From NCBI RefSeq assembly GCF_000236905.1, contig NC_016530.1, positions 472,386-536,385 of the forward strand: a stretch of DNA of 64,000 nt, in the 5' to 3' direction. The stretch comes from Tetrapisispora phaffii CBS 4417. Taxonomy: Eukaryota > Ascomycota > Saccharomycetes > Saccharomycetales > Saccharomycetaceae. The position numbers were made by a program, and so were the translations under genes. Positions 40,890-63,816 of this stretch are shown here, piece after piece (within the stretch, counting starts at the first letter, position 1; the number at the start of each line of letters is the position of its first letter). The notes beneath the pieces were generated by a model that saw only the letters and a list, made by a program, of their open reading frames with translations, did not search any database and was not told the origin of the DNA.

Positions 40890-41818
40890 TCAATGTCCTG
40901 TGTCGCAGGATAACCAGGTTACAGTTTCAGTTTCCTCTGCATAGAACATACGCAGAGATAGTTGCCAATCTTGATCTTTTCCGTTTTCTTCAAAAGTATA
41001 TAATTTTAAAAAATCTGTTTGCCAACTTTCAGTCTCATCCTTTGTAATTATTTCACGATTTGAGCCTGTAATTCGTTGCTGCTATAAACTCCTGCCCACT
41101 GTTTTTGGATAGCACAATAATCGGTAATGAAATAGCCCTTACAAAGGGGATATACCTTCGTCGCTGTTCTTTTACTAATATTTAAAGAATCTGTAGACGA
41201 TCAAGTAACAATGTCCCACAAGTGGCATTTTTGGTCTTATAATAACGTCATAATGGTATCCAGAGGTGGTATTATGTACTTGGACAACAATATCACTGTT
41301 TCCTATATTACTTCTTGTTTCTAATCTTGAATTATTGTTGTCAACTAACACACCACCATTCTCAATGAATGCAGAAGCTATTCCATCATGTACGCTACCC
41401 AGGCTACTAGTACGATTGCTAGAGATAAAATGGCTCTCTTATTAAAGGAACCACCAAGGAAGTCACCATTAGGTCCCAATCCACTATGCCAACCCATTGT
41501 TCCTGTAATAACATTTTGAATAGCACCTCTGACTAAATCGAAAATTCCGTCCTCACAATCAGTGTTTGCAGGATCCTCATGTTTGGCTTTGCAAGCGTCA
41601 CGGGTATCCTGCATCCGTTGAATCCATCTAATTGGCCCTCCATCAGAAGCAAGAAAAAAACCCCACCATCCTACTTTACATAAAAATGGATCATTAACAT
41701 CAAAATGCTGATATAGCAATGATGTAGCAATGAAAGGAATTTGTTCATAATATGGAAATGATCCTGAAACACATACCAAAAGTGTCACTGAAATACCAAA
41801 AATATAATTCAACTTCAT
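40890..41818 (-). pseudogene. Broken gene for a secreted, Kex2-type protein (killer-preprotoxin-like layout)
   Basis: The first part (41818 to 41378) is an intact 146-codon frame. It has a signal peptide (MKLNYIFGISVTLLVCVSG), then a hydrophobic Gly/Trp segment with CKVGWWGFF (residues 47-55), a charged stretch with Cys76 and Cys88, and a Lys-Arg site at 127-128. Downstream, coding-like frames carry on in other phases to 40890 with at least two breaks; these pieces contain N-glycosylation sites and a final Cys. The same order (signal, hydrophobic Cys domain, KR, C-terminal domain) is seen at 43046-44108. Killer preprotoxins have this plan, but no sequence identity to a named toxin is claimed. 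Breaks may be decay or sequencing error. An open GTG upstream (41833) is not used. Confidence 0.6.
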
Positions 41819-43045
41819 ATTGATGGTTCTCACTGTTTTTTCTTATTTTTTATCATTCATCAATTGGAGTACCGAGAAATAACATACGAAATTTTATTAA
41901 TATCCGGCGGTTTATATAGTACGATATGGTAAACAATTTGTATAATATTTTGAACAAGTTTTTATTGAACATCAAATAAATATGCAATATTGGTACAACA
42001 ATGATTGTCTCCAGTAACAATGCAGTCGTTGTCCTGTAACTGGATAAGTTAGTGTATCAATTGAGTTAGAAATTAAGTAACTATTCACAATATTTCCTTA
42101 AAGGCTACGGAGAACCCTGCATATTGCGCACCGCTAAATGCAATCGGAAATAAAACATCTCATATCTTCGTACTGTGAGTATTTCAAGCTCAGTTTTCTC
42201 GCCTAGCAACACCGCATTGTTCTATATATGTATATATAGTCACTGGAAGCTCAGAACAGTTCGCAGCAAAATATTCTTGTTGCTATGAATTTCAACCGTT
42301 GTCCATAGATTTCTGGGCGTATTTTATTGGCAGCTTCGAAATTTGAAATTTTCAAATTTCTTCTTCCCTCTGCGCGGCAACGAAAGACAATATGCACCAA
42401 AATAGAGCGGCAGAACAGTTATGCTTCAATATGCAGATGATGAAAAGTTTGCAACCAAGGAAACTGTTAAGTTGCAATTGGATAGGTTGAATTGGAAAAG
42501 TTTGTTCTAATCTTCACTCCTGAGATAAGGATTTAGTCGTCGAATAACTTTATTAATGTTTAAAGATTTGTTGTTTTGGATATAAACATTGTTGAAAATA
42601 TTTATATCTTGCCTAATTTTATTTAGTGTTTGGCCATATAGGATAACACATACTTGAATTAGGAAAGAGCAAATATCACATTCGTGATAGTTTGTTATTC
42701 GTATAACTGAAATAGGCGACGTCACAATCCAAGTTGGTAATTAAAATCACTCGATATATTTAACGTGTCTTTCGAAGATAGAATCGTTTCGTGATCGTGA
42801 CAGAAATCATTGGTATAAATACCAAGGTTTTTCCAGCCATGTAAGATAATTCAAACTGTCTTAATCAACTTGTATAATTAGTATATTTTATGAATTACTT
42901 ATTTTATATAGATCCGAGGGCATTATTTAATTAATTGTATATGTATATCAGCATAATATACAGCTTAACCAAAAAAATTCTGTTTTCGATTTGTTGATAA
43001 TTTATAACGAATTATATGCCTGAAATTTAATATAAGAATTGTTTC
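41819..43045. other. Divergent spacer with R1 copy B
   Basis: Between the two divergent secreted-protein loci. Holds a 23-bp near-perfect palindrome (42338-42360, 11-bp arms GAAATTTGAAA) and R1 copy B (42562-42925), which ends about 120 bp before the ATG at 43046. The 72-codon minus-strand frame inside R1 (42507-42725) is not preserved in other copies. Confidence 0.6.
42562..42925 (+). repeat. R1 dispersed repeat, copy B (promoter position)
   Basis: Inverted relative to A and C on the map, but read toward the gene at 43046 it has the same direction as copy C read toward the gene at 45291. It includes TTGGTATAAATACCAA at 42810-42825 and CTTAATCAACTTGT followed by a TATA-rich stretch. Its place upstream of a secreted-protein gene argues that R1 acts as a shared promoter. 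Confidence 0.85.
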
Positions 43046-44108
43046 ATGCTTTCATTTGCACAAGAAAATCGCAAATTACACTTTTGTAAACTTCTCTTAT
43101 TGTTTATTAATCTATTTATTGTTTCATGTGCACCAACCTCCATATCGTCAAATTCCACAGATTATGTAGCATATTTGCCAAATTTGTTACCACTAGAACA
43201 GTCATATAATATATCTGCATCCTTGAGGTGGCAGCAAATTATGTCACATGATTTTACGCCACTAAATAAGAGATGCAAGTTGGACAACTGTAAATTGGGT
43301 TGGTGTTGGTATGGCTGGTTTTGGTGGTGCGGGTATTACTCTTGCATCAATTAGTAAATATTGTTGCAAAAAAGACCCTGTTTCAGGGCAAGATACTTTC
43401 CGTGACTGTAGATGGTCATGCGTTTTAGCGAGTATCAGTACTCTATTAGTAGTTGTTGGCGCATCTTTGGCCACAGGAAACTGGCCTACTGAAGGAGCAA
43501 TAGGTGGACTAAATCATAATAATAAAAGAAATATTGATTATAAAAACTATACTTCTATTAATAAAATGATAGAGAATTTTAATTCTATTGGTTTAACAGT
43601 CCATGATACGTGGGGTAACAATTATTTTGAAATTGGAGAAAAATTATATGCAACAAATACATGGTTTAGGTTACATGCACCTGGTTTTGGTCCGGTTGCA
43701 AATATTTATATTAGCCCTGAAAATTCTTATCTCACAACAACGCATCCTAATGATCACATGAATAATCCTCGAAATAGAAAGTTGGTAGATTATACGGAGC
43801 GGTACGATTCATCATTTTGGTTGGGTGGGGGTTTGATCACCTCTTACTGTCGTTACAACAAAGGAGGTTCGGATCTTGCTGCACCTAAAGATACAAATAT
43901 TATTTTTCCGGCAATAAACTCTCTTCAGCATATTTTTACAGAAGTTTATGGCCCATATCACTGGATTATCAATGAAAATAACCTTTCAAACAGGCATATA
44001 GCAGAAGGAGTTTTAAGTTACTCTGATACATACGATGGTACCAGGCCTGGCTTTCTGCCTACTGGTGGTATCCCATCTGTGTGTTATGGTGACCACGACG
44101 AATTATAA
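43046..44108 (+). pseudogene. Frameshifted gene for a secreted, Kex2-type protein (killer-preprotoxin-like)
   Basis: Two overlapping frames make up one apparent gene. The first (43046-43354, 102 codons) has a hydrophobic signal segment (FCKLLLLFINLFIVSC), two NxS/T sites and a Lys-Arg site at residues 75-76. The second frame is open from 43266 to 44108. Its first ATG is at 43311, where a Gly-rich hydrophobic segment begins; it continues with YCCKKD, RDCRWSC and LLVVVGASL, then a Lys-Arg at 72-73 of that frame, then a roughly 190-residue C-terminal domain. The switch must fall in the 90-bp overlap. Whether it is a true mutation or a sequencing error is open. The domain order equals the broken locus at 40890-41818. 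R1 copy B lies upstream, R2 follows at 44200. Confidence 0.65.
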
Positions 44109-44409: not shown

Positions 44410-45291
44410 TTAACTAAAACAATCATTGACATAAGCAAAATTGGAGTTTGAAGAAGTAGGACATTGCATATCCCATGCATTGGTTGTAAACCCCGGGATA
44501 CCTAATTGTAATATTCTAATATCCGAATCCCATGTACCTCCATGATTTAAGTGTACACAAATACCAATTTTATCATGAGAAAGTTCATGATCTACAATTT
44601 GTTCAAAGGCATTTCTTATATCATCAGTTGATGCCGTAGTTTTACAATTACTTCCAGTAGTCCATGTGGACCAGGCAACGGCCCACTGCCCATCATTATA
44701 TGTCCACCAGTATACAACATCCCCACCACAATTTTGAGTTGAACCACCCTTAATTGCTGAAGCAATTAGAGAGGCAAGACTAGATGTATCACCAACTGCT
44801 CTTAATAAGTTATAACCATTTTCGTAGACATAAGATATGGTCGTCTTAAGAAAAGATAATATTTTTGCCGTGCAAATACCCGTGTAAAAGGAAACACTAC
44901 CAGGAACATCACTCTTCATTAACGAAAAAGAATTGACAAAAGTGTTTCCGTAAAGAGTGCCAATATATTCTGCTTGCCCTATTGGGCTTTTCACTTCTAG
45001 GTGAGTGTGGTTATCAGATACACTTATCACTGTGATATTAACGGATAGAGTTATATTTCCAGCAAGTGTAGCTGTTTTTGAAACAGTTTCATTCATTGGA
45101 AAATCACTTGTCCAAGCTGCTATATCATCTTGTGTAGCTCTTCCAGCGTAGAAGCCGCCGACAAATTTTAGAGGAATATGCGGATTTGAGTTCACCGCCA
45201 TAGGAACTATAAATGTTTCCTGGCAACAAACCACATGGTCTAACAAAAATAAGCCAAATATTAAACTTTTCCATGAAAGAATGGATAACAT
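44410..45291 (-). CDS. Secreted protein with C-terminal four-Cys domain (unnamed family)
   Basis: An intact 293-residue frame. Signal peptide at the N terminus (LIFGLFLLDHVVCCQ), then an N-glycosylated region (Asn67, 79, 85, 94), a hydrophobic helix-like stretch (about 141-182), and a C-terminal domain with Cys188, 216, 245 and 277. The last contains CGGDVVYWW, DDIRNAFEQIV and GICVHLNHGG. The gene at 58836-59740 shares this domain (CNGGFVWLN, DDVVTTVINYSV, GFCTSFVHDS, DVRV, then NA and a final Cys). R1 copy C sits directly upstream. Function is unknown. Subtelomeric place, secretion and company of Kex2-type proteins make a toxin-like or wall-acting role conceivable, but this is inference. Confidence 0.75.
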   Translation of the reverse strand: MLSILSWKSLIFGLFLLDHVVCCQETFIVPMAVNSNPHIPLKFVGGFYAGRATQDDIAAWTSDFPMNETVSKTATLAGNITLSVNITVISVSDNHTHLEVKSPIGQAEYIGTLYGNTFVNSFSLMKSDVPGSVSFYTGICTAKILSFLKTTISYVYENGYNLLRAVGDTSSLASLIASAIKGGSTQNCGGDVVYWWTYNDGQWAVAWSTWTTGSNCKTTASTDDIRNAFEQIVDHELSHDKIGICVHLNHGGTWDSDIRILQLGIPGFTTNAWDMQCPTSSNSNFAYVNDCFS

Positions 45292-45303
45292 TTTTTGTTG
45301 AAT

Positions 45304-45705
45304 ACTAGATTTTATTTGGTTCTTCTTTGTTAAGAGTCTGTGATTTATTATAATTGTCTGTGGGGATCTACATAAAAGAAATAATATATAAAATATACTA
45401 ATTACACAAGTTGATTAAGATAGTTGATTTATTTTACATGGTTGGAAAACCTCTGGTATTTTTACCAATGATTTCTGTCACGATCACGAAACCATTCCAT
45501 TTTCGAAAGTTATATTAAATATATTGAGTGATTTTAATTTCCACTTTGGGTTGTGACGTTCGTCTATTTCAGTTATACGATTATCAAATCATCACAACTG
45601 TGATATTTACTCTTTCCCAATTCAAATATGTGTTATCCTATATGGCCAAACACTAAATAAAATTAGGCAAATATAAATATTTTCATCAATTTTTATACCC
45701 ATATA
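45304..45705 (-). repeat. R1 dispersed repeat, copy C (promoter position)
   Basis: Starts 13 bp upstream of the ATG of the 44410-45291 gene and reads toward it. Same blocks as copy A, in the same map orientation. The best example of R1 acting as a 5' flank. Confidence 0.88.
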
Positions 45706-45827
45706 TAATATATATAATGAGTATAGAAATAAGACAACCAATTACAACTCGACTAATTGTACAAATTACTATTACAACAACACTAATAGCAGTATGTCTT
45801 CCTAGTACGCCCAATTACTATCTCAAC
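45706..45827 (-). repeat. R2 dispersed repeat, copy 2
   Basis: Reverse-strand copy carrying the common core, including ATTACAACTCGACTAATTGT and CCAATTACTATCTCAA as seen on the plus strand. Abuts the distal end of R1 copy C. Confidence 0.85.
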
Positions 45828-45911
45828 AATACAGCCAATCAAGTATTAGTGTTCGTATACGGTACATTGCTAAATTTGGCATTAACTCGTGTTCTGCTTA
45901 GGTTTATTTGA
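45717..45911 (+). other. 64-codon hydrophobic frame within R2 copy 2 (doubtful gene)
   Basis: ATG at 45717 opens a 64-residue hydrophobic frame (MSIEIRQPITTRLIVQ, then TTTLIAVCL). It runs through R2 in the antisense direction. The corresponding frame in copy 1 has a stop near the start, and copy 4 has one too. Copy 3 is open. It is most likely a by-product of the repeat, although a small membrane peptide cannot be excluded. Confidence 0.2.
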
Positions 45912-47627
45912 TATCTAACTTTTCTTTGCTGCAACTTGAAACAAAATTGAAGACTCTATGAATATCTTCGTTTCTGTACGCAACATTGTGGCTAATATCA
46001 GATTATTTAGAGTTTATCTAAAATGGCAATGCAAGGTTCTGAAACAAAATTTTTAATAAAACTTTTCTTTAGGTTAGCATTCTCAATCACTATAAGAGAC
46101 ATAATTATATTAGAATATAACATCACCGGTGAATCTAATGGCAGTTTGGTAAACGAATCTGCATTGAAACATATTTTTGAATTTTGATGCAGTCGTTGTG
46201 GGAGAAATTAGAAATATCTGCACAATACAGATTGACTAATAGAGGTGGCATCATTGCTGTTTTTGAGGCTTCTGTGATTGTTTCTAATGAGACTTAATTG
46301 TTTCATACTGGAATTTTCATAAATCATTTTTTTCCGCATTTGGTTCGCCATGTGACCGATATGGAAACATGGTCCTGCCGGACAAAAAAGACGTACGAAA
46401 TGTTGTTTTTCATTCTGGTTTTGTCTAGGAAACAGGTATCGCATCGGGTGATAATGTTCCGTGAGAGAAAGTTCCTCTTCCCTGAAGTTCCCTCTAGGAG
46501 ATACATCTTGAACTGCCAATCTATTACGGCACATCAACTGATGCGACCGATAATGCAGTCCCTGGCATAAATAATTCTAAACCCAAGCTATACAGCACTA
46601 AACTTTTCCAAGGAATATGAAGTTTGCAACTTTGTTACTCAACAAGCGGTCAAGTACACGAGAGTGAAACATTTTACTACATACATATAACTCCTGAGGC
46701 ATAAGTAGTAAACAGGATGCAGTGCGCATTTCACACCTATCATTCCAGTACTGAATAATGTATTTACTTTTCTGAGATACAATTTCTAAATGTACTATTT
46801 TCTGTTAAACGAAGAATGATCGGAGGAATGATATCCAAACACATACTGCTCTAGTTTTGGGCGTATGCAAAAAATAAGTAGATTTGAATATACTATACCC
46901 GATATGTTTAAGTAGAATGTAGATTAGTAGATTGAATAGCTTTGGAGCTTGTATTTATTTGTTGTTTTATCCTTTTTTGAATATAATTATGTATATAGCA
47001 TTACAGACTAAAAATAAACATATTGATTAAAGTAAATCATATCCTATTTATGTTTTAAATTATTCCATTTCTGTGAGTACGGAACCGTTCTTGCTATGAA
47101 ACATCTTTCAGATCGGACCATAGTTACTTATATTTCAACAAATTCCGAATAATCAAAATATATTTCTATAGATACCTAACACAAACAGGAGAATAATGTA
47201 TACTACCACGTTTAGTGAGAGTAGTAGTCAGGTTTCCTAAATATTTAACTGGATGGTTACCATTACTATAACCATTATGGGTATGAATAAATTGTAAGGT
47301 TGAGTTGGTCTTGCTATGAAATGCAATTACAGATGCTGACAATTCGTCTCTACCTCGTTTAGTTAGACTATGGTCAGTAATTTCATAATCATTCGTAGCG
47401 TAACTCCGTGATAGAGAGAGTCAAAGAGCTTGTTGCATGTTGAATGTAAAGTTATGTCTTTAGTTTGATTATTGTATGAGAAGATTTAATTAAGCGAATT
47501 ATGTCTCCTATTAAGAATATCCGAGCCATCTATTGCCCCATCTTTAAAATGAGTAGAACCGTAGTAGACTGCCACGATTACCAACGTTTTCAATAATACT
47601 TGGCTCAGATCAAGTACAGCCTGAGTG

Positions 47628-47812
47628 CAATCCAAATTGATAATTAAAATCACTCAATATATTTAACATGTCTTTCGAAGATGGAATGGTTTCGTGATCG
47701 TGACAGCAATAATTGTATAAATACCAGAGGTTTTCCAACCATGTAAAATAAATCAACTGTCTTAATCAACTTGTGTAATTAGTAAATTTTATATAGATCC
47801 CTACGGAGATTG
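47628..47812 (+). repeat. R1 dispersed repeat, copy D (short, joined to R2)
   Basis: Shares CTTTCGAAGATGGAATGGTT, CGTGATCGTGACAG, AACTGTCTTAATCAACTTGT and TATATAGATCC with the other copies. At its gene-side end it passes straight into R2 copy 3, with no gene between. In the intact arrangement (copy B) a gene of about 1.1 kb separates R1 from R2. Confidence 0.85.
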
Positions 47813-48257
47813 TTGAGATAGTAATTGGGCGTACTGGGCAGACATACTACTAGTAGTGTTGTTTTAATATTAATTTGTACAATTAGTCGAGTTGTAATTG
47901 CTTGTCTTATGTCTATATTCATTATATATGTGTCATGATTGATATACATGACTATTTATCTTTATGTCCTGGAGTGAGTGAATATAATTTTGTTAACACA
48001 TTGCTACAGAATTATATGACACCCATATCTTTTCACCTATGACTTAATGTTAGTAGTAAGGTTAATTTTCTACGCGGTTACAATGCCGAAATATGAATTC
48101 AGGCATTACTCATAGTTCAACACTATCAGCACAGCTGTAGCAGGCATCTACGCTTATTATGATTACAGCGAGTCAGTATGGGTGCGTATTGCCTGATGGG
48201 GTTCCTTCTATGCTGAAGATGGAGGTGTAGCTGACTCCGTTGATGCTATAAGAAATG
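47813..48257 (+). repeat. R2 dispersed repeat, copy 3, long form ending at the N gap
   Basis: About 445 bp matching copy 4 (49990-50436). The last 155 bp (48103-48257) appear identical base for base to 50282-50436. The final part contains the start of a decayed secreted-protein fragment and is cut by the gap. Confidence 0.85.
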
Positions 48258-48277
48258 NNNNNNNNNNNNNNNNNNNN
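48258..48277. other. Assembly gap (about 20 N)
   Basis: A run of Ns of a standard length, placed exactly where a 155-bp perfect repeat ends. The true size and content are unknown. Confidence 0.95.
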
Positions 48278-49989
48278 ATGCCCCGATTTTCTCGACTTGA
48301 CTATTATTAACTTAAACTATGTCATAATAAATACCGTTTTTACCAATTTATGTACTAGCCCAAATATAAATCAGATCCTAAATAATATTTTATACTTCTT
48401 ACTTTTTACGAAATGAATTTCAGTAATCGTCTTAATATTTATTCAGATGACAAGAATTGCCAGATTGGTTTCTGTTATCTATTAGCGATATACATTAAAA
48501 ATATTACTTTGACAAAATATTTCCATTCCATAATATTCTAGTTTCTTGGAATTTCAAGCAGCAGATAACAGAATTATCATTGAGCAGCATCAACAGTTTT
48601 TTATATAGGTGTAAATAAGATAAAGAACACTGCTTAATTACTATATTCAGGCATAAAATCTTATGCTTGCATCTACCTAGGAAGTTGATTAAAAACGAGT
48701 TATATACACTCGATAACTAATAACTAAAAACCATTATTTGGTCTGAATTATAAAAAATATATCTTACTCGTAAGGGTTGCTTTTGCTGGTATGAAAGAAG
48801 GTGTCTTTTTTTGGTAAGACTGATGGCTAAAGCATTAACGATAACCCATTTAGCAGCAAAATTTGCTAATGTCTTAAAATGAAGTTGGATTGTAGCTATA
48901 GGTACTATTAAATCTTAGGGTAAAGCATGGGCTATAAGACTACTACAAAAGAGTAGTTAGAAAAAGACAAAATTTTATTTGGACAAATATAAAGAACTTT
49001 ACAAAACTTACATAGAAAAAGTCGAATATAGATAATATTACGTTCTTATTTACCAAACCATTTATATTCAAAAATGAATCCATGAAGTAATCAAAATAGG
49101 GAAAATGTGTTATATTTAGTAAGTTATTGGCACACATAATTACTCGATGATAATTTATGTGCCCATCACTAGTTCATACTTTGAAAACGATTGGACATTT
49201 ATTAAATAGTGAAAAGGCAGTGCTTACACTAAGAACAAGGAAGTTGATCTATGTTGGCAAGTATCGAGTATTTTTGTAGAAGACTCTAGACAGTGACCTT
49301 CATATCAATAAATTTGGTCACATTTTATAACTTTGTAAAATAAAACTTGTGCCAGACATTCCCATATGAATCAAATGGTTGAGTTCATAACTTTATATTT
49401 GTGGCACACATATTAAACAGAAAAATAAATTGTTTTGCAAACTACAGAAGACTATGTTGCTTTATTAAACTAAGGCATGCAAGCTGTTAAATGCTATTCA
49501 TAATAAGACAACACTTTTGTTGAAGCGGTCTACATGATACTTCAGGGAGCATAAAATTATACCCACTAATATGCGATAAATTAGTAACAATGATGACGCA
49601 TAAATTATCTTTTATACTCTGAGTGCTCTGTCAAACCATACTCAAATTGGTAAGATTCTTCTATAAGCTATATGCCAAAAGAAAGTGCATGCGCTTTATT
49701 GCTATAAATTTTAAAGAGATGTTCCCAATAAAAACAGTCATTATTCTATTGTGAATACAGGTTATTTTGGCTTGATTGATATTCATCATTGTTTTTTTGT
49801 AATCCCTATTAATTATTTTTCGAAGTTGTGAAAGTGTGAGTATTCAAATTATATCTTTAACTTTGCAGTGCAAATAGAACTGCTTATATGAATAGTTTGA
49901 TGATGTTCTAATCTACCTTGCTATTCCTTGACCTCCCACTGCTGCTAATAGTATTAAATTATTTTTCTCTCGTGCATTGCATAAAGTGT

Positions 49990-50436
49990 CGAGATAGTAA
50001 TTGGGCATAATGGGAAGACATACTACTATTAGTGTTGTTGTAATAGTAACTGGTACAATTAGTCGAGTTGTAATTGTTTATTCTATTTTTCTTTTATAAA
50101 TTATATATCTGACATGATTGATATACATGACTATTTATCTTTATGTCTGGGAATGAATAAATATAACTTTCTTAACACATTCTTACAAAGTTATATGACA
50201 CCCATATCTTTTCACCGATAACTAAATGTTATTGGTAAGGCTTATTTTCTACGTGGTCACAATGCCGAAATATGAATTCAAGCATTACTCATAGTTCAAC
50301 ACTATCAGCACAGCTGTAGCAGGCATCTACGCTTATTATGATTACAGCGAGTCAGTATGGGTGCGTATTGCCTGATGGGGTTCCTTCTATGCTGAAGATG
50401 GAGGTGTAGCTGACTCCGTTGATGCTATAAGAAATG
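49990..50436 (+). repeat. R2 dispersed repeat, copy 4, long form
   Basis: Long copy of R2 matching 47813-48257, with a perfect 155-bp stretch at its right end. It flows into the secreted-protein fragment at 50310-50555. Confidence 0.85.
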
Positions 50437-50555
50437 TCTGTAAGCAGTGTGTTGCAGATAAGCAGGATCTTAATATGGATTGTACTCAAGCTGCACTTGA
50501 TCTGAGCCGAGAATTGGTACAGACGTTAGTGCTTGCAGCTGTTGGGTATGATTAA
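50310..50555 (+). pseudogene. Fragment of the 41-kb secreted-protein family
   Basis: Two pieces in different frames. The first reads AVAGIYAYYDYSESVWVRIA and stops. The second begins GSFYAEDGG, continues through NVCKQC and MDC and ends LVLAAVGYD. The pattern follows the hydrophobic Gly/Trp segment and the two-Cys stretch of the locus at 40890-41818 (WWGFFLASDGG, ACKAKHED, TDCED). No signal peptide or C-terminal domain is found. The same fragment, cut by the gap, lies at about 48130-48257. Confidence 0.55.
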
Positions 50556-52201
50556 AGAAAATCTCATTATATAACAATAACTCATTAAGTAATTATTGTT
50601 CCATGCTAACTGCCCAAGTTATTCATCAAAACAGGTCTTGGCATGACCAAATTAAAAACTTGTATTCGAAGTATTAGCAAAATTTCTGTTATTTACTCAT
50701 CACTACATGGCTCAAAAAAATAACAGATGGCAAGGTGTGGTTACCTATTCTCATCTAAAAGCACTTGCCTATATACTAGTGTGCTGTAACAGGATTGTGA
50801 AATTATCCTCGATTCAGTGCCCAATCAATACTAAGTTGGCATTAATGTATCACTTTCATGCTGCGAATCATTTAAGAATGAAAACTATTCGTCCCTGTTA
50901 GTGCTAACAGGAGATTTATAAAATCAGAGTTCTACTGTCGAAGGGATGTTTGTAATTCTTGTAACATGTGTGAACTGCCTTTAGTCTTTGAATGCAGTCT
51001 ACAGATGAGCTCAGGGTTTTCAGCTTTTCCCATTTGCCTTCAACCATAAGTGCCTGGTACAAAAAGTACATTAAATGGATTGACTGTTCTTATTGTTCGC
51101 CACCTCCTCTTTGTCATATCTTTTACTTTTGAGCATCTATGCTTTTGAATCTCAAGATCTTCTTTCACTTCCATCACTATATATATGTTGCGTCGTTCAT
51201 ATTCCTTGCAGCAAACATTTTTAACCACGTGAGAATAAATAAATGGAAAAGTTGGTTTACTGGAACATGGATTCAACGAATGGTTTTAATAGATATATCA
51301 AAGAGGAGAAATGGGATTATCTGTATTTATTCCACCAAAGCAATCTCACAGCTGTAACTAATAAGCAATTGTACTGATACTGCAATCTGAACAATAAGCT
51401 GTTAGATCAACAATAAAACCTACCAAATATATAAATGCACTCGTTCCATCAAAACTTTTATTACGGAATCAGACTAATTGTTCCTGCGTATAGCCGAATT
51501 AACAAACCAGCAATGGAAGCTCCATAGTACATATTTGATGATTACTTTTGTATCAAGCTAATTTTGAACTTCGGACCTATTTAATACTACCATTTTTACG
51601 AGAGCTCATTGGATAGCGATGCTTATAACATGTCCACATTGTACTTTTAGATTTACTAACAGTTTGGGTACTGCGGGCAGAGACTAAATCGTCTTTTATT
51701 GATGTAAGTCGAACACATATGTAAAATAAGTAACCCTTGCAGCACTAGATTATAACTTTAGGAAAGTGGTGTCTATGGCAAGTTCAGTTGTGATTCAGTA
51801 ATTATTGCTTTCATACCGAATCACAAGCAATGGGGCATATCAGACCAGACCACAGCCGTTGGCCTAGGTGTTAGAATATGTGTTTGCTCAGTCGAGACCA
51901 CCACAACTTTATATAAGAAGTGTTGGCAGAATAATTCCACTTGCTCTACCCAGTTCCAGTTCGTGCAGATCACGGCACCGGCAGCTAATGTAATGGACAG
52001 TCCACAGAAGTGCAATGACTGAAGGAAAGATCGGCAGTTATGTCGCGTAACTCTAACTGTCACAATTTATTTTTGTGTCGTACCATTTCATATATTAGTA
52101 TTTAAATCCAGACTATTTATGGGAAGAATAACTAGAGGATACAATATATACACAACAATTTCGATTTAAGGTCACAAATTATAAATGAAGAAATATAAAA
52201 C

Positions 52202-53439: not shown

Positions 53440-53468
53440 TATTAAGTAACTTAATGATAGGCCGTATT

Positions 53469-54377
53469 CTATGCTATAGCTTCATCATATGTAGGTAGCT
53501 TCATACTATCTTCTGATTCTAGACCGTCTGCAACATAACTATCAGCTACAATATAGCCCATATATCTGTAGTTCCTTAAATTAGACAAGCCTGGTACCTC
53601 TGCTTCAGTAAGGAGAAGTTTAACCTTTCTCACATCTTTTCCATAACGTGCCTTTGCTACCTGATTGCATCGTCTCACTAGAGTACCATGGGAAAGACTC
53701 CCATTAGTAAACTTAATGAGATGTTCCCTCCGCTTGCTCCCATTTATCTCCATTTCGTATTGAATCGGAAAACGGAGCATCTTTATAAAGGTAAAAGGGC
53801 AGTACCTTTTTTTCCCTTTGTAACACTGAATGCAATATCTAATATGTTTCATTGATGCTAGGGCATTTTTCTTGGAACAGTTCACGAATATTACTGGAAC
53901 GTATGAGTCCAAATCTCTGACAGTAAAAAACTTGGCTTTGAGTAACGGCCCCAGACATTTTTCTTGGTCAGCCAGTGTTCCCTTATACATAGGTTCAGGG
54001 TACTTCGTTGGAGAATATAACTGCATTGAATTTATTTTGGGGATTGAAGTCGCATTTATTCTAGTAAGATCTAGCCTTAGTTTACTTTTCTTTTTAGATG
54101 GTGAGATCCAGCAGGGTGTCGGAATGTATAGAGTCCCATTATCATCATTCCCAACTGCGACAACTACGTCGATACCATATTCAAATTCTTCGAGTAGATA
54201 TTCAATTGGAAGTTGAAGCTTTTTTGAGAAGCTCATCTCTTGATAGTTGATACCTAGGCGATGGAGAATAATACTGAGAGGAGTATCTTTAATATGTCCA
54301 TATGCAACCCCCAAAGGGTAATCAAACATCACTTTCCAACTCTTTTCGGAGCCTATGGAAAGTTCTTGGATATCCAT
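53469..54377 (-). CDS. Unrecognised 302-residue protein ending in LPTYDEAIA
   Basis: An intact frame with an ATG start, convergent with the gene at 52202. No signal peptide or membrane segment. It has a basic middle (SKKKSKLRLDL, GSKRREHLIKF), several cysteines near CIQCYKGKKRYC (a possible metal-binding pair arrangement) and an acidic C terminus with LPTYDEA, which resembles an LPxY motif for Rsp5-type WW domains. I do not recognise the family. Its length, intact frame and ordinary composition support a real gene. Confidence 0.6.
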   Translation of the reverse strand: MDIQELSIGSEKSWKVMFDYPLGVAYGHIKDTPLSIILHRLGINYQEMSFSKKLQLPIEYLLEEFEYGIDVVVAVGNDDNGTLYIPTPCWISPSKKKSKLRLDLTRINATSIPKINSMQLYSPTKYPEPMYKGTLADQEKCLGPLLKAKFFTVRDLDSYVPVIFVNCSKKNALASMKHIRYCIQCYKGKKRYCPFTFIKMLRFPIQYEMEINGSKRREHLIKFTNGSLSHGTLVRRCNQVAKARYGKDVRKVKLLLTEAEVPGLSNLRNYRYMGYIVADSYVADGLESEDSMKLPTYDEAIA

Positions 54378-55934
54378 CTAGTAGTATAAATCAGATATAC
54401 CGAGTTACTTTCCTATTTACGTACCTTAAAAAGTGGTACAAAATGCACTGTACATTATTGTTGAGTCTACATAAACCCATTTATACGCTTCCTTATATAC
54501 CCAGTATCTTGCAAATTTTGGGGTCTCATGTCACATACTCTCCTTTAATTATGTTTAACCTAACATTATATGTTCTGCTGAGTCAGTGCTTGTCTTAACT
54601 ACAGATGTTGCATTGCTATTTGGCAGGCATTCGTAGTTTTGCTCAGCTACCAGCCATCAATATCGTCAGCGAAAGAACACAACTGAGCCTAAAGACCTGG
54701 CTAACACAACAGCAATATGTTATCAGCAAAGAGACTTATAGTGCATGAAAACTGCGGCTGAGTGAGCTTCCATTTCTCTGTTTTGCTTTATATACCATCT
54801 CACTTATTGCTCCTGTAAATCCCGAACTTGCTTTTATACATTTGCATTTGTTGCCCCTTGCTGGGCCCGGGTAACGAGGGAGCAGGAAGCAAATGGAACA
54901 GATGTTTGCTACAAGCAACGGTCTATTGGACGGTTCGATCCTGATGGGTTATAAGTTCTTACATTAGTAGAAGTAACTATGGATGTTTTGTCACATGGTG
55001 GTCTTCAGCAATTGTAAGTCGGTGAATATAGCAATGAGCAATGGGGTGTGGACTTTTTTAATAGAGAGCTAGTACGCAAGGTCTAGGACTCCTGACAAAT
55101 CAGATTAAAATTCGAGATAACCGAGGATCTCCCACACACCCCAACTTCATGGTGTGAGGCGTGATCATGAGATAATACTGGTTAGAACAGAAGATTAAAG
55201 ATTTTAACATACCTGCTATTTCCTCGAAAGATCTGCAAATTATTGTAGAGCGATGAATACATATTAAAGATCTACACCAACAACTTACTTGTGGGTCCTT
55301 TTCCATTTAAATGAGGAATTATCATAACAGAAAAATAGCACATATAGCTCTCTTATTTATTTTTGAAAAGTTAGCTGCTTCAATATCATAACTGTGGTAT
55401 TACAATATGAATATACAACAATTTTTGCTGTAGAAAAAGATGAAAAACTTGTCACATCACTAACCTTCCATTGATTCCAAGAACTCAAATATATGCTCGA
55501 TATGACATCTTCTAAATATTGATACATGTAATTATTCTGAGGAAGGTAACCTAATGCCATATTTTTTGCAATGTACATATGTTGAGCTTCGTTGAATCTG
55601 GTGTTTACTGATCATCATAGAATACATTATTTAAAATACTTGCCCACTGAAATATAAATAGTGATCGGTCAAAAAACAATCAGCTCTGGCAAAAAAAGTA
55701 CTCATTCAATAAGTATTTCTAGAAACACAATTGTTTTATTAAGATTGATTGGAAAGTTTTACAAGCTCAAGTTATCTAGAAGCCATGGAATACTATATTC
55801 AAAATTTACTGTGCACTCAAGCCTAACGAAGATATCAAGGGGATATTGAACTTAATGAAAAATAAACAACTGTAAAGATTACTTATATCTCCTTTCTCCG
55901 CTTAATGGATATAGTTATTTCCTCTTTTTTTGGA
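54378..55934. other. 1.56-kb region without a supported gene
   Basis: Short frames only. A GC-richer patch occurs near 54840-54960 (GGGCCCGGG at about 54863), with a GGTTCGATCC at 54932-54941 that is one base short of a tRNA B-box and has no matching acceptor stem. Confidence 0.5.
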
Positions 55935-56703
55935 TTAAACCTCCTTTTTATATCTTAGAACTGTTTTCGAATAACACAATACCTTGCCAAATAAGCATCC
56001 TAAAAACCCGAAAGTAAATAAAAGAGGATATTTAATTTTGGAAATAAATCTTCTTTACTTCCTTCAGATTAGGATTGGTAAGTAATTATGAATCGGACAA
56101 TCAGACAAACCAGCTAGCAGACTGATAAAGTGCTTTAGAGGATAATATAATGAGAAAATAAAGGCTGTTTTATGAGAAGAATGTGTTTTCTTAAAAGCAT
56201 CATTCAAGTGCTCAATCTTACTGTTATGCCTATGCATTCTATTGGTAAATTTCTGAATCCACACTGAACAATGCTCTTCAGAACATTTATGCATCTCAAC
56301 AGAAAAATAATTTATCGATACGACATGGTTAGACTCTATAGTTTCATTTATTATCATGAGATTATCCTGTAGTTGAATATATTTGACTATATTCTTTGGC
56401 TTCAAAAACCCCGTCTTGTGCAATGAAACATCCAATATAATTACCTCGCTTCTCAAAGACTCTATGACCAATTCTATTTCACTAATAAGGTTAAAATACA
56501 AAATACTGAACTGAGCAAAACGCTTAGCAGTAGATATCAACACCTTTTCACATAAAATATCATTGTTATAGTGCAGCACATCCCTTAGATTAGGTGAATA
56601 CACGGCTATTCCTTTTGGATATTTCCATATTTCTAGAGTGAGGATTTTTGTTGGGTGCCGGGAAGGATTAAAATGGTATTGGACCAGCGTTCTAAATCAG
56701 TGA
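55935..56703 (-). pseudogene. Decayed paralogue of the gene at 52202-53439
   Basis: An open stretch without an ATG runs from about 56703 to 56064. It contains LEIWKYPKGIAVYSPNLRD and HYNND, matching KIWESNGKAVAFAPHLSRK and KYGND of the 52202 gene at the same spacing, followed by similar long helices (WIQKFTNRMHRHNSKIEHL). After two stops the same frame goes on with a hydrophobic segment (PLLFTFGFLGCLFGKVL) and a basic tail to 55935. It lacks the N-terminal region. The scan start at 56603 is a GTG, not a yeast start codon. Confidence 0.6.
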
Positions 56704-58835
56704 AATGGAACTTGAAAGTTTGATATTCTGCTTTCCCTTAATGTTTATTTTCATTGTACTTTCCTCTTCTGCCGTTAAATCTCTATCAGTGTTGCCACTA
56801 GACAATGAGCCCATGACAGTGTTATGTTTAGTATTTTTCTAAAATTTTGATTACGGTATTACACAGGCTTTTTTATTTATCTTATGTTTACTTCTGATAT
56901 CACCTAAACCAGGTGTGGAAATATTACAATAGCAACAATAGATAGTATCTCTTATAGTTTACCAGTATTTTTTTCTTCAAAGGGGTTATACAAGAAACCT
57001 AGCTCGGTTATAGCTCTTTTGGGTAGTTACTTTATATGGTCCAATGATTTCTTACCTTGAATAATACAGGTATTACTGAATGAAGAAATTCTCGCATCCA
57101 AACTTGGGATAACTTCAAAGTTTCTTGCCGTCTAATATCTTTTCTAAAACGATTGAAGCTTTATTAATCCTTTTTATTTTAGTTGATGCCATTTGAATGT
57201 ATGTGGTTTATAAAATTTTAGCCGCCTAAGTATTTTTGTGTTGCATTAAATACAAAACAATGGATTATCATTAATTCTTTTCGATGGTGAAGATAATGTT
57301 GTTGGAAATGACACTGGACGTATAAGTGACTATACGATACCAGATATTACCTCTTTACGAGACTATTGTTGCTAACCTGAAACAATAGTGCCTACGAGAA
57401 TGCACTTGCAGAATTTCTAATGCATAAATAGTACTGTAGAACCATCAGTCTGCCATACGTGTTCAATTCGACACTGTCGGCTCGTTGGACAGAACGGTAG
57501 ATTGAAATATTATGTATATATTAAATCCTGGTAATCAATAGTGAATAATTCATTGATCCAGGTCCAAGAGACTAGAGAGATTAATCTGATTATATAGTAT
57601 GTAATTTAACAACCATTAATATATTAAAGCAATGAATTCAACTATTGGGCAAATGTAAATATATTACTGTTTTGGAAATAATCAATCAAAGACTCTATTT
57701 TGTTATTTGTGCTTTTACTATCGACTTTCTTTGTACTTCTAAATATGCTTCCAATTTTTTTAGGAACATATCTTTGAGTCGATTATATCCTTAACTGATT
57801 TTTTATAGTCTTCTTTCAATATCTGTAGCAGTTGCTGCTCTGATATATATTTGTCCATTGAATGCGTATTGATCATATGGGATAAGAGGTTTCTTATATT
57901 AATATAAGAGTTTAATATATTGTCCTATATGGCAGATCTTAAATACTAAAAAATTAAGTGTGGATTTCCCCGGCTGCGAATAATTTGATCACGCAACAAT
58001 ACATTAATAAATCAACAAACAACTACGTTCCACTTAATAAAATATACACATTAAAAACACAAAGAGTTTATTGTTATCTATCTTACCGAAATGTACAATC
58101 AAGACTACTTCCAAAAATTGCAGAAATACAGCTGATTTAGTTATGTCAATGTGATAGGAATTACACTGTTGAGATAGTAATTGGGCATACTGGGAAGACA
58201 TACTACTATTGGTGTTGTTGTAATAGTAATTTGTACAATTAGTCGAGTTGTAATTGCTTATCTTTTTCCGATATATAATTTATATAAAATTACATTTAGA
58301 CTAAAACATAAATATAGAGAATATAAAATCATGTCCTATTTGTATGATTTCATTACTTCTATTTGTATGAGTACAATACCTGTCTTCAACTAGCTAAGCA
58401 TGAAGAACATATTTATCTCGGACGATATCCGCTTATGACTCATACTTCATGTTGAAATCTAAATTCAAGTATTACTCATATTTCAACAGAACACGACAAG
58501 GACGCTAACACATGTCTACTCTGTTTTCTGCTATCTATATAATACCTAATGGATTACTTAACGGTACTACTAAAGGTGTACTCACCATTTATACATTTAT
58601 ATCATGTTGGTAACTAGTTGCTTAAACATTACTAATTCACCCAATAGTCTTCCCAATCTCATATAGCATAGGTTACACCATTTATTTCATGGAAATTTTC
58701 TCTGAATACGACTTGGCTGTTATTAAATCTAACATCAACGGTTATAATTTATAATGTATCAAAAAAGACTTTGCAAAAATTAGCAAACTTAGTATTGCTT
58801 TCTCATATTAAAATTAATGATATAATTTTCGCTAT
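56704..58835. other. 2.1-kb region with R2 copy 5, no gene
   Basis: AT-rich, short frames only. R2 copy 5 lies at 58169-58520. Frames at 57958-58140 and 58181-58393 have no ATG support or lie in the repeat. Confidence 0.5.
58169..58520 (+). repeat. R2 dispersed repeat, copy 5 (diverged)
   Basis: The core at 58169-58265 is close to the other copies (TTGAGATAGTAATTGGGCAT, GGGAAGACATACTACTATT, AATTAGTCGAGTTGTAAT). It then diverges, but shows the later landmarks again near 58430-58490 (GACTCATACTTCA, TTCAAGTATTACTCAT, TTTCAACA). Confidence 0.7.
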
Positions 58836-59740
58836 TCACCAACTTCCACAAACTATATTCCACCCATACAATGCATTTGCATATTTTTCCTCCCATCTCA
58901 TTACACGGACATCTATTCTCCCAACAGAATCATGAACAAATGATGTACAAAAGCCAGCTATATCTAATTTTCTGATGGATTCAACGGAATAGTTTATAAC
59001 CGTTGTAACAACATCATCACAGGATAATTGTTTATAGGTATCATTAAGTTCATAATGAGTATAGCCAACCCAATACGCAAGTTTATCACTCCCATCATCA
59101 ATGTTTAGCCATACAAATCCACCGTTGCAAATCTTCTTTTTAACCTCATACTTCCTTCTTATCTCCAAAATAGTATTAAAAAAAGGTATTTCAGTTAATA
59201 CTTCAAAAATCCTTATAGCTGTTGCCCGTGCGTATTGTTTCCACCTAGCTAATAGTCGTTTATCTAAGAATGTTGTTAATTCAAGAAAAGTATTTGTAAA
59301 ATTATGCCAATATTTGTTAGCGCAATCTTCACGTTTCGAAAGTCTGTTAGCTTTACTACCTATGGTGCGGCCTACAAGTGCGATCATTTCATCCACAGTA
59401 TAATTAGTATTTGACCCATCCCTTCTCTGTAAAGTATTTTTTGACAATCTAGTATTTAACATATTTACGAATTGTGAGACACCCTCATAATCAACTTCAA
59501 TATCAGTGTATCCCATGCTATCCATATATGTTAAATTATCCCCAGGCATTACAGCCAAGACATGTTTAGGAACACCATGTGTTAAATAACCTCTCGTTAT
59601 ATTGGGAGCCAACACCTCTAGTTCTACGCCAGTTGTGTTACCAAATGAAAGCGGTGGCACAATTATTGGTCCATATTTCCGATACAGTTACCAATTTTAA
59701 TAAATAGTATACTTGCTAATAATATAAGTTGATAAAACAT
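58836..59740 (-). pseudogene. Secreted Kex2-type protein gene with four-Cys C-terminal domain, frameshifted near its start
   Basis: The main frame (58836 to about 59690) holds 274 codons from a GTG at 59660 and is open a little further. It has no ATG for a signal peptide. A separate frame beginning at the ATG at 59740 encodes a typical signal peptide (MFYQLILLASILFIKIG) and stops after 25 codons, overlapping the main frame, so one shift near 59665-59700 separates them. The main frame has dibasic sites QRRD and SKRED, NxS/T sites, a helical middle with a further DKR, and a C-terminal domain with four Cys (178, 214, 238, 271) shared with 44410-45291. No R1 element lies upstream. A killer-toxin-like secreted protein is possible; function not shown. 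Confidence 0.6.
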
Positions 59741-62537
59741 GTTTAAAAGTTGTAATTATTAACTGTCTAGAGAGTGTTTTTCAGACAATAAGCAAACTTG
59801 ATTTTTTTTGTTTCAATTCTGAGAATACCACTCTGATTTGATGTAAATGGAGTTTTACATATGAAATTAATAATAGAGTAAAAAATATATTAGACAGGAA
59901 TATTTACGTATAATTTATGATCTTTTATAGTTCAAATATAAATGTTTAGAGTTTATTAGTTGCTAAAACAGAAATACTGGAAACCTAATTCAATGAGTTC
60001 CGATTCAATTAGGGCATTGAGTTGTCATTAAAATGAAGGTAAATACTTCACTGGTTAAAATAAATTCCAAAATGCGACGCCTTCTGTAAAATACACATTT
60101 TTATTTAAGAAACATCCGTTGCAAACACTTTCCGCGCAGTGCAGTCACAACATAAAAATTTTCAGTTCCCAAACGAGCGTCTGAAAGTCTCAGAAATCCG
60201 CGTACAATAAATTCTTTATAATACCGACAAGCATCACTATTTCTTGGGGTTCTCTCAGCCATTCGTTACTATGTTAGGCTAAACAGAATTTTCATTCGTA
60301 CGTGAACATTGTGTGAATTACAAAATTTAGACGCTGTTGTTCCCGAATGTCGTTGCGTTTGTAACAACATGCGCAGAACGACGACCTGATAGAGATATTC
60401 CGCGGATTTCTGTTTCATTCTTCAGTCAGTTCTCAATTAAGCAATTTCGCACTGTCAAGAGGACATATACGTTGTTTCTGAATATGAAAGGAACGGGTTA
60501 TATTGTCTAACTCAAAATTCAAAAGTATCACTATTCAGAGTTTCGTATCCAAGATATTTGTTCAGTTATAAAGCAGTTGAGCTTTTGTATGAGAACTGAA
60601 GAAATTTCATTCTCAATCTTGTTGATTAATGTATGCGTGGTTTCGGTTACCAAAAATTAATCCATTAAACATTTCTAAGCTTTACACCTAAATTTTTATG
60701 AAGTTTCTTTTTCACTAAAATTTCTATTACCTCTAGTATGTTTTACTTCTTTTTATAGTCCCAAATTGTTTAAAGTATATTTAATTATGTATCAGAGTGA
60801 AATCGCTATCTTGATTAAACAAAACTTCACAATTCTCTCTAATATTACTATGGCGATAAATTACTGAGAGATCTTCGAGAAATATCAATTCGTATCGGTC
60901 TTATAGAGGAATTATTGCACTGCGCGGAAAGTGTTTGCAACGGATGTTTCTTAAATAAAGACGTAGCATCTACAGCTCGTGACTTAGGTTGGAATTTATT
61001 GCGATCAGTGAAGTACTACTAATCTCTACTACAACGACAGTTTAGAACCCTAACTCAAGAAATTAATATGCACTTAGAGGGATATGGCTTCTATATAAAC
61101 CCTTGTAATTAGGAGTTTCATTGATGTAATATTTCGGTAACTTCTTGTAAAGCTTGAAGCTTGTAAGTGAATGAGCATTTCTAAAGCTACTAGGACTTCA
61201 AATATATACGTCCACAGAACGTATATGTAATTCCGATCTACTGTTTACTAACGGAAAAGGAATATAACATTAAAATTTAAAACATCGTCTTATTGAATGT
61301 TAACTTTATATGTGATATCGGTACTGAAATGCTTGTTTTAAATAATATCTTAATAAAAATAAAATGTAGCTGCAAGAAACTAAGCAACTCTTAGAGTATA
61401 CGCACATCAACCTTGCGGCTAAGATTACTTTCTAAAAGAGTAAGTGCATAGTTGGTTGCATCAATTGACCAAGAAATTAATTATACCTTTGTTAGACTTC
61501 CCAGTTAGTAATGCTACAGTTATTAAGTACTTTGTTCAATGGGCATTATTAATTGTAATTGGGAAAAAAATACCTCACACATTTTACTCTGAAGATTTCA
61601 CGGCAACATATCTTATTGGTAAACAAAGCGCATGTGCTACTAGGTGATTAGGAGTAACGCGAATGCAATACTATGCAGTTGTTTATGTGGCAACCAGTTG
61701 AAAAGAAAGTCCCGCAGCAGATATATATTTGGTACTATGAAGTTATAATTGTTGTACTGAGAGGTTTGAGAGTTGCTCTGCGATCTTTTAAATATGATAA
61801 TTTTTTCGAAGTTTTATATCCGCTGCAACGGATTAATTCTCTGATATATTACGAATGAAAAGCATTTATATGCATTATTAAACGATTTTTCAACATTGCT
61901 GGAGCCGTTTATTGTGAAGAAACTTATGATAAAATCTCTTATTACTAGAACTACAATTTGTTGAGATAACAACCATAAATATTATTCTGTTGCAAATTGT
62001 TGCAACCAATAGCATGCTACGGATAATTGTCTTTTCATGCCAATATTTCTTGCAGCAAAAAAATGTAAATAAATGCTTAGAAAGTGCAGTAGGACAGTTG
62101 TCACATTATATTACCGTAAAGACATTACTACAGTAAAACTTTCTTCACAAATAAATTACCACCCACCTTAAAGAATATAAATATTTTAGTGCCGTTGTTC
62201 TTAGTTACAGAGAAATATGCATATTTCATTCAGGAATAAGGAACACGGTTCTAAGTTTCTCAGAGTAATAAAGTGAAGTATTTATTGATAATTACAGTGG
62301 CTAATATGAATTAGATAAGGTAATAAATGGTTTTAATAAGTTTAATCAGTTAATATGACTAACGCTCAATCAATGGCTACTCAATTGATAATTAATTTTA
62401 TAAAACTAAAATATATAAATTAAACTATTATCCATTGAAGTTTTTACAATATATTGATACTACATTATAAATATTTAATATATAATGTTAATTTATAATA
62501 AGGCCCCAAGCAACACATTGGGGTCTGCAAAGAATAA
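59741..62537. other. 2.8-kb region with an inverted-repeat element, no gene
   Basis: Contains the 44-bp inverted repeats at 60100-60143 and 60916-60959. Frames at 61444-61647 (GTG start) and 61673-61858 are adjacent and in different phases. They could be a relic of one gene, but nothing recognisable is in them. Confidence 0.5.
60100..60959. mobile_element. 860-bp segment bounded by perfect 44-bp inverted repeats (possible non-autonomous DNA element)
   Basis: The left arm, 60100-60143, starts TTTATTTAAGAAACATCCG and ends CGCGCAGTGCA. The right arm, 60916-60959, is its exact reverse complement. The interior has no long open frame. It carries a second, internal inverted pair CAGAAATCCGCG (60191-60202 and 60401-60412 in reverse). 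No clear target-site duplication was found outside the arms. A MITE-like or deleted DNA transposon is the best reading; a local inverted duplication is the alternative. Confidence 0.5.
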
Positions 62538-63197
62538 ATGTTATTTAATAATACAACTTACATCATTAAATTTACTCTTTTATTAGTAATTTTATCACAA
62601 ATTACAAAAATACAAGCAATGGAGGTTGCTCTAGCATCACCTTACTTAGCACTCAAAGTGAACTTAACTTCAAATAATGAATATTGCTGGATTTTGGAGC
62701 ATTCTGCGTATATGGCACCTAACGAAACCCATGGAATGAGCATTTGGGTAACAACTTTGGGGGATACAGAGTTCGAAGCATTCCGTTTTTGGAAGGAAAT
62801 TAACGGTTCTTTAGTAGAGTCTGGAGAAACAGAACTCATCAATAATGATATAACGGCTAATCCAAAATTATACGGATATAATTCTACGTACGATTATTGT
62901 GTAGAAGTTGAGAAATATCAATTCGATTTACCAGTAAGACAATATTTGACAAAGGTATCGTATCCACCTATTTCTAACAATACAAAAGTATTCAGAAATA
63001 AACGCAGCGTAGATAATGATTGCTGGAATGAGCCTTGCTATGACGTAAGAGATTGCCTTGTTATTGATAGGGCTTGTGCACATTGTGAGAAATATCCTGG
63101 GATGAGACAACAAGATTGTGAATATCAATATACTGAAAATATTGCTGGATTTCGTTGGGTATGTTGGATGGATTATTTAAGACACTGCCATAAATAA
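62538..63197 (+). CDS. Secreted pro-protein with Kex2 site and eight-Cys C-terminal peptide
   Basis: An intact 219-residue frame, the last gene before the telomere. Hydrophobic signal segment at about 9-27 (IIKFTLLLVILSQITKIQA). A pro-region follows with N-glycosylation sites (NLT42, NET62, NGS90, NST115, NNT148) and two Cys. RNKR at residues 153-156 is a typical Kex2 site. The remaining 63 residues contain eight Cys (162, 167, 173, 180, 183, 194, 209, 217), enough for four disulfides. The design is that of a secreted, proteolytically matured, disulfide-stabilised peptide. No family is recognised. A killer or other antagonistic role is an inference from layout and place only. Confidence 0.7.
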   Translation: MLFNNTTYIIKFTLLLVILSQITKIQAMEVALASPYLALKVNLTSNNEYCWILEHSAYMAPNETHGMSIWVTTLGDTEFEAFRFWKEINGSLVESGETELINNDITANPKLYGYNSTYDYCVEVEKYQFDLPVRQYLTKVSYPPISNNTKVFRNKRSVDNDCWNEPCYDVRDCLVIDRACAHCEKYPGMRQQDCEYQYTENIAGFRWVCWMDYLRHCHK

Positions 63198-63787: not shown

Positions 63788-63816
63788 AAAGTGAGTGTAA
63801 TGAATGTTAAGGTAGT

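What the first reader, a model, noticed from the sequence alone, without database searches (positions are those of the whole stretch)
40890..63197. Telomere-side cluster of five secreted, mostly Kex2-type protein loci
Five loci within 23 kb encode small secreted proteins with signal peptides, dibasic sites in four of them, Cys-rich mature parts and N-glycosylated regions (40890, 43046, 44410, 58836, 62538). They fall into at least three unrelated types. The precursor plan equals that of yeast killer preprotoxins, and K1-like genes have been reported in subtelomeres of non-Saccharomyces yeasts. The cluster could be a chromosomal antagonism arsenal that turns over fast: two intact members, three broken. 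This is the best candidate for an undescribed system in the window.
Basis: partly seen in the sequence, partly recalled or inferred. Interest (0 to 1): 0.8.

Follow-up and report, generated by a model that had tools for sequence, protein, structure and literature searches.

The report
Subtelomeric yeast killer-toxin gene cluster
Near the end of one yeast chromosome sit five genes for secreted proteins, most of them resembling yeast killer toxins and three of them broken; related genes lie at many other chromosome ends of the same genome, and one kind carries an unusual ER-return tail that deserves testing.

Summary
In detail: five secreted-protein loci lie 0.8-23 kb from a telomere-capped contig end, two intact (44410-45291, 62538-63197), three broken. 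The killer-toxin reading is largely supported, but two of the types are already known. (1) 40890-41842 is a K1-family (KKT) pseudogene: three open relatives in the same genome reproduce the published K1 cysteine layout and the alpha-KR-gamma-KR-beta plan. (2) 44410 carries DUF6736, and its six mature cysteines fall within 2 residues of published KHR positions: a KHR/Klus-like chromosomal killer gene. 58836 is probably a broken, divergent relative. (3) 43046-44108 is a broken member of a small family without Pfam or PDB match: Kex2-type preprotoxin plan, hydrophobic alpha part, and an unmasked C-terminal HDEL in 2 of 4 members; K28's HDEL is arginine-masked. (4) 62538 is a single-copy orphan with an 8-Cys mature part. 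Genome-wide, K1-, DUF6736-, 58836- and DUF5341 (K2/KHS)-type places sit on 16 contig ends, each within 27 kb of an end, among Ty5-like LTRs. So the cluster is one patch of a genome-wide subtelomeric killer repertoire: a known kind, with one new variant. Killing was not tested; both structure models were unusable.

The parts
40890..41842 (-). K1-family (KKT-type) pseudogene: leader-alpha piece 41378-41818, later pieces in other frames, last piece 40890-41081 ending CDTGH
   Evidence: one alpha Cys of the K1 layout (at the -3 place) is lost in this copy, beta +9 pair and last Cys 4 from the end kept in its pieces
43046..43354 (+). leader and N-terminal piece of the HDEL-type preprotoxin locus, with KR
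43266..44108 (+). alpha-gamma-beta piece of the HDEL-type locus in another frame, ending GDHDEL
   Evidence: single copy in the genome
44410..45291 (-). intact KHR/Klus-like gene, 293 aa, PF20521 (DUF6736), no dibasic site
58836..59687 (-). 283-aa frame of a broken, divergent DUF6736-like preprotoxin, four [KR]R sites
59684..59740 (-). leader of the 58836 locus, in another frame
62538..63197 (+). intact orphan preproprotein, 219 aa, NKR then 63 residues with 8 Cys; single copy in the genome
47489..47653 (-). relic of the K1-family alpha part; 47166-47420 (-) with two KR may be its continuation (inferred)
48098..48244 (+). relic of a K1-family alpha part, next to a run of N
50265..50552 (+). 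relic of a K1-family alpha part
39526..39938 (+). LTR-like repeat copy
42555..42915 (-). LTR-like repeat copy upstream of 43046
45297..45839 (+). LTR-like repeat copy followed by the start of a Ty5-type gag relic
47628..47809 (-). partial LTR-like repeat copy
63805..64000 (+). telomere-type repeats, period 23, at the contig end

Best explanation
The cluster is one decaying patch of a genome-wide subtelomeric repertoire of killer-toxin genes in a Saccharomycetaceae yeast. Shown: which loci are open or broken, family links inside the genome, K1-type and KHR-type cysteine layouts, position at chromosome ends, LTR-like repeats between the genes. Inferred: the precursors enter the ER, form disulfides, are cut by Kex2 (44410 perhaps at a monobasic site or not at all), and are secreted as toxins that damage membranes of competing yeasts (K1 type: ionophore after beta-1,6-glucan and Kre1 binding; KHR type: membrane attack). 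Copies spread and die by subtelomeric recombination; alpha-only remnants may keep an immunity role. In this window only 44410 and 62538 can still make a full-length product.
For: K1 family: 22 genomic matches (fragments and self included), each within 23.2 kb of a contig end; open relatives of 310, 291 and 291 aa (the last two near-identical) show the K1 layout +3, +12 / +9 / last Cys 4 from the end (published C92, C95, C107, C239, C248, C312 of 316; test; 0 of 20000 random 7-Cys sets). KHR type: 44410 cysteines match 6 of 6 within 2 residues, 2 of 5000 random sets do so (positions); DUF6736 E 1e-9, 6 places in the genome. 58836: C2:3.8 kb and C11:12.5 kb match both it and 44410. K2/KHS domain DUF5341: 9 matches, 7 contig ends, two open proteins with leader and KR. 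Killer phenotype in the genus: Kazachstania made up 40.5% of killer isolates in PMC5085023 (passages), toxins unidentified there.
Against: No killing, secretion or expression data. K1 and KHR sequences were not in hand, so membership rests on cysteine layout, plan and position, not on alignment; Pfam has no K1 model that hits. KHR has 11 Cys, of which I had positions for 9, and offsets were scanned. 44410 lacks a dibasic site. 62538 has no relative. 58836 has no Pfam match of its own. LTRs may simply reflect insertion into silent DNA.
Confidence: 0.8

Rival explanations
1. The HDEL-type locus descends from a toxin that worked like K28: the beta chain's HDEL binds Erd2 on the target, the toxin travels back to the ER, and the alpha chain kills inside.
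For: Leader and Kex2 plan with K28-like domain sizes; GDHDEL in 2 of 4 members; HDEL is an ER tail in this yeast: 3 leader-bearing HSP70s of 13 HSP70 frames end in it; HDEL alone suffices for uptake of GFP in PMC4974620 (passages).
Against: No masking arginine as in K28, so the producer's own ER should hold the precursor back; the other 2 members end HDDVGA and HDEF; a GG..C..D motif end also occurs in DUF5341 proteins, so HDEL may be a by-product (not significant); the alpha part looks membrane-active rather than nuclear; no sequence link to K28 could be tested.
Confidence: 0.18
2. The HDEL-type family is a divergent branch of the ionophoric K1 superfamily (K2/K45/K74-like), and the tail is irrelevant for entry.
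For: P0003 has just four cysteines after the leader, 121 and 134 (+13) before a hydrophobic helix and 285 and 363 in beta, like the alpha and beta disulfides described for K2, K45 and the K74 relative (C69-C82, +13).
Against: No DUF5341 match; hhalign against this genome's DUF5341 proteins gives probability 0.6%; a DUF5341 beta HMM ranks P0002 10th, P0001 54th and P0003 309th of 878 listed, with shuffles above it; P0002 and the window copy have more cysteines and only one hydrophobic alpha segment over threshold; model pLDDT 37.
Confidence: 0.5
3. The loci are ordinary secreted or cell-wall proteins without toxin role that share an AT-rich subtelomere.
For: Sequons, dibasic sites and leader-like starts are cheap in AT-rich DNA (5 of 79 shuffled ORFs are leader-like); 62538 has no relative; GAAAAA near the start, a mark of dsRNA satellites, is in 2 of 5 loci against 2 of 13 core genes.
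Against: K1 and KHR cysteine layouts, conserved Kex2 sites in relatives, DUF5341 genes at other ends, no match to a non-toxin family above a curated cut-off (DUF6736 has no described function).
Confidence: 0.12

Closest known systems
[quoted passage not shown]
   Same: 41378 locus and its relatives: cysteine layout, leader-alpha-KR-gamma-KR-beta plan, multi-copy, subtelomeric, many pseudogenes and copies cut off after alpha
   Different: Window copy is broken and lacks one alpha cysteine; sequence identity to K1 not measured; activity unknown
KHR and Klus family (PMC13211469)
   Same: 44410: length 293 against 296 aa, six cysteines at KHR places, order helix-hairpin-helix-hairpin in a low-confidence model
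   Different: No dibasic site, fewer cysteines than KHR (11), subtelomeric here; no sequence alignment to KHR made
K2/K21/KHS family (DUF5341)
   Same: HDEL-type family: domain sizes, Kex2 sites, alpha cysteine pair before a hydrophobic helix (P0003)
   Different: No DUF5341 match, HDEL tail; true DUF5341 genes lie elsewhere in this genome
K28
   Same: HDEL-type family: HDEL tail, four-domain preprotoxin of similar size
   Different: HDEL not masked by arginine and present in 2 of 4 members, chromosomal, alpha part more hydrophobic; K28 had no homologue in PMC13211469
Ty5 retrotransposon
   Same: Gag relic beside the LTR-like repeats; the C13 copy matches the Ty5 Gag N-terminal Pfam model (E 1.9e-42)
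   Different: Only LTRs and gag starts seen in the window

Membership tests
K1 family (41378 locus) | Six-cysteine layout: +3 and +12 in alpha, +9 in beta, last Cys 4 from the end | tested here: met
   Met by open relatives C1, C11-left, C2-left; the window copy keeps the +12, +9 and last-Cys parts in its pieces and has lost the first alpha Cys
K1 family (41378 locus) | Leader, alpha, gamma, beta separated by Kex2 sites | tested here: met
   Two KR sites at matching places in the open relatives; by pieces in the window copy
K1 family (41378 locus) | Sequence homology to K1/K1L/KKT by profile search | not tested
K1 family (41378 locus) | Killing via Kre1 and beta-1,6-glucan | not testable with these tools
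   Bench only
KHR/Klus family (44410) | Cysteine positions of KHR | tested here: met
   6 of 6 within 2 residues, 2 of 5000 random sets, with 9 of KHR's 11 positions known
KHR/Klus family (44410) | Kex2 sites defining the domains | tested here: not met
   No [KR]R in 44410; the C15 relative has a KR. I therefore call 44410 KHR-like, not a proven member
KHR/Klus family (44410) | Alpha/beta sandwich fold | tested here: inconclusive
   Model pLDDT 32
K2/KHS family (HDEL-type locus) | DUF5341 domain | tested here: not met
   No Pfam match at E 10; weak profile comparisons
K28 (HDEL-type locus) | C-terminal HDEL masked by arginine and freed by Kex1 | tested here: not met
   Unmasked HDEL in 2 of 4 members, other ends in 2
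K28 (HDEL-type locus) | Sequence homology to K28 | not tested
K28 (HDEL-type locus) | Erd2-dependent uptake and G1/S arrest | not testable with these tools
   Bench only

The most novel reading that the evidence does not exclude
The HDEL-tailed family is a chromosomal class of preprotoxin that joins a membrane-active, ionophore-like alpha chain to an Erd2-binding beta tail: a second use of the ER-return signal by a yeast toxin beside K28, with the unmasked tail also holding precursor in the producer's ER as self-protection.
Probability: 0.18. Interest if true: 0.8.

Novelty: new variant of a known kind. Interest (0 to 1): 0.5.

Why it matters
One yeast genome holds K1-, KHR- and K2/KHS-type genes and relics together at its chromosome ends, which bears on how killer genes move between dsRNA satellites and chromosomes, how they die, and whether cut-off copies serve as immunity genes. 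The HDEL-tailed family offers a comparison for K28, for which PMC13211469 reports no homologue.

Tried and rejected
Shared promoter: a 300-bp module upstream of 44410 and 43046 looked like a common promoter. A genome search gave 42 matches, 39 within 30 kb of a contig end, and the neighbouring repeat is the start of a Ty5-type gag, so it is most likely an LTR.

dsRNA capture mark: GAAAAA upstream in 2 of 5 loci, 2 of 13 core genes, 5.7% of random 80-mers. No firm support.

Assembly error as cause of the breaks: the 12 core-gene frames used (up to 1861 aa) are open, so a high error rate is unlikely; reads were not seen.

HDEL family as K2 family: not significant. Relatives of the HDEL family or of 62538 in viral contigs: none. 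Structure prediction: pLDDT 37 and 32, so no fold search was run. The terms DUF6736 and PF20521 occur in 0 papers of the library. Rfam at gathering cut-off, 36-64 kb: 0 matches. Solved structures, 8 searches: no match better than E 0.1. Of the 15 pairwise locus comparisons, besides the known 43311-P0003 pair only 44410-58836 stood out clearly (1 of 300 shuffles); 41378-P0003 was weak (5 of 300).

Full report
Setting. The window is the right end of contig C11 (472386-536385 of 536385) of a 12.1-Mb, 17-contig yeast genome and ends in 23-base telomere-type repeats. No call names the species; the only named protein hit for any locus is from Maudiozyma exigua.

The observation. All five loci exist. 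Their frames exceed anything in 200 shuffles of the region, and codon usage fits coding in five of the six main pieces; the short 43046 leader piece does not. Four of five loci have [KR]R sites.

40890-41842. The leader-alpha piece has seven genomic matches, itself included. The full open C1 relative finds 22 matches (fragments and itself included) on ten contig ends, each within 23.2 kb of an end. The C1 (310 aa), C11-left and C2-left (291 aa each, near-identical and so not independent) proteins have a leader, two KR sites and the cysteine layout published for K1: +3 and +12 in alpha, +9 in beta, last Cys four from the end. The C7 copy has a 276-aa frame without a start codon at its head, so its state is unclear. 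Two copies (C8, C2-right; 200 and 209 aa) stop shortly after alpha, like the truncated KKT genes of PMC7888664 (passages), where such pieces are proposed as immunity genes. Relics of the family lie at 47489-47653, 48098-48244 and 50265-50552. I conclude that this locus is a K1-family pseudogene.

44410-45291. Pfam gives DUF6736 (E 1e-9). The protein database gave no other hit, but the own genome holds six DUF6736 places, of which only 44410 shows an open frame with its leader: C10 and C11:4.0 kb have stops, C15 has its leader in another frame, C2 and C11:12.6 kb are pieces. Its mature cysteines 140, 188, 216, 245, 277, 291 of 293 match KHR's 143, 189, 219, 248, 279, 294 of 296 (positions) within 2 residues; 2 of 5000 random sets do as well. 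Against K28 positions 2 of 6 match. The C15 relative keeps the spacing (49, 28, 29, 31, 13 against 48, 28, 29, 32, 14) and has a KR that 44410 lacks. I call 44410 KHR/Klus-like.

58836-59740. Its 283-aa frame finds C4, two places on C2, and C11-left; C2:3.8 kb and C11:12.5 kb also match 44410. The C-terminal domains of 44410 and 58836 beat all but 6 of 5000 shuffles (domain chosen after seeing the alignment; whole proteins 1 of 300; one of 15 pairs compared). It has no Pfam match of its own. A broken, divergent relative of the DUF6736 type is likely.

43046-44108. Three relatives are known: P0002 (386 aa), P0003 (372 aa), and P0005 (324 aa, M. exigua), which has no [KR]R site and looks decayed. 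P0002 and P0003 share a leader and three KR sites, two at matching columns and the first four columns apart. Domain lengths in P0003 are about 80, 92 and 108 aa, close to those printed for K2, KHS and K28. P0003 and P0005 have two hydrophobic alpha segments over my threshold, P0002 and the window copy one. The third KR is lost in the window copy. Ends: GDHDEL (window, P0002), GDHDDVGA (P0003), DDHDEF (P0005). In this genome a BiP-like and two longer leader-bearing HSP70s end HDEL (3 of 13 HSP70 frames shown), so HDEL is an ER signal here. K28 uses HDEL for uptake but masks it with an arginine in the producer; here it is open. The tail may be functional or a by-product of a conserved GG..C..DHD end; the data do not decide. 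The family is single-copy in this genome.

62538-63197. A single-copy orphan with leader, seven sequons (overlapping count), NKR, and eight cysteines in the last 63 residues. Secreted and probably Kex2-cut; a toxin role rests on plan and company.

Genome-wide view. DUF5341, the K2/KHS-family domain, has nine matches on seven contig ends (one below the cut-off), with open C4 (380 aa) and C16 (344 aa) proteins. Together the K1-, DUF6736-, 58836- and DUF5341-type places sit on 16 contig ends, each within 27 kb of an end; such stretches make up about 8% of the genome if 17 contigs have 34 ends (lengths of 15 contigs were seen). C2-left and C11-left bear clusters of the same sort, so the window is not unique. 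The repeats between the loci are LTR-like: 42 matches, 39 within 30 kb of an end; a gag frame beside a K1-family fragment on C13 matches Ty5 Gag.

How it works, most likely. Kex2-cut secreted toxins with self-immunity carried by the precursor, expanded and lost at chromosome ends. Toxicity is inferred from family, not shown. Papers: PMC13211469 by abstract, passages and sections 2.1, 2.4.2, 2.6 and the first parts of 2.3, 2.8 and 2.9; PMC7888664, PMC10542562, PMC4974620, PMC5666379, PMC5085023 and PMC11017505 by passages; others as search listings only. Kre1 and beta-1,6-glucan as K1 receptors come from PMC13211469.

Noticed in passing
53469-54377 (-): 302-aa protein without leader, Pfam or PDB match, is a subtelomeric family: 16 genomic matches, the 15 on contigs of known length each within 20 kb of an end, several with open frames of 295-316 aa, often near killer-type genes (for instance C4:1034.6 kb beside a DUF5341 gene). 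Function unknown; an immunity or defence role is only a guess.
   Followed up: partly
52202-53439 (+) and 56064-56696 (-): Two paralogous frames (23% identity over 190 aa) with no Pfam match above cut-off; the first seems broken, with a membrane-type end in another frame.
   Followed up: no
60004-60143 and 60916-61058: Inverted repeat pair (72% identity) that encodes a Cys-rich peptide on both arms; possibly a relic of a further secreted gene.
   Followed up: no
46208-46534 (-): 108-aa frame, of which a near-identical copy lies beside the C15 DUF6736 locus (L051:223-522): a dispersed subtelomeric repeat.
   Followed up: no
L045 (C13:450606-452480): Ty5-type gag frame about 0.6 kb from a K1-family fragment near a contig end.
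   Followed up: partly
L016 (C8) and L017 (C2-right): Two K1-family copies cut off shortly after alpha yet open (200 and 209 aa): candidates for immunity-only genes.
   Followed up: partly
38560-38874 (+): 104-aa Ser/Ala-rich frame with leader and hydrophobic end, like a small GPI-anchored wall protein.
   Followed up: no
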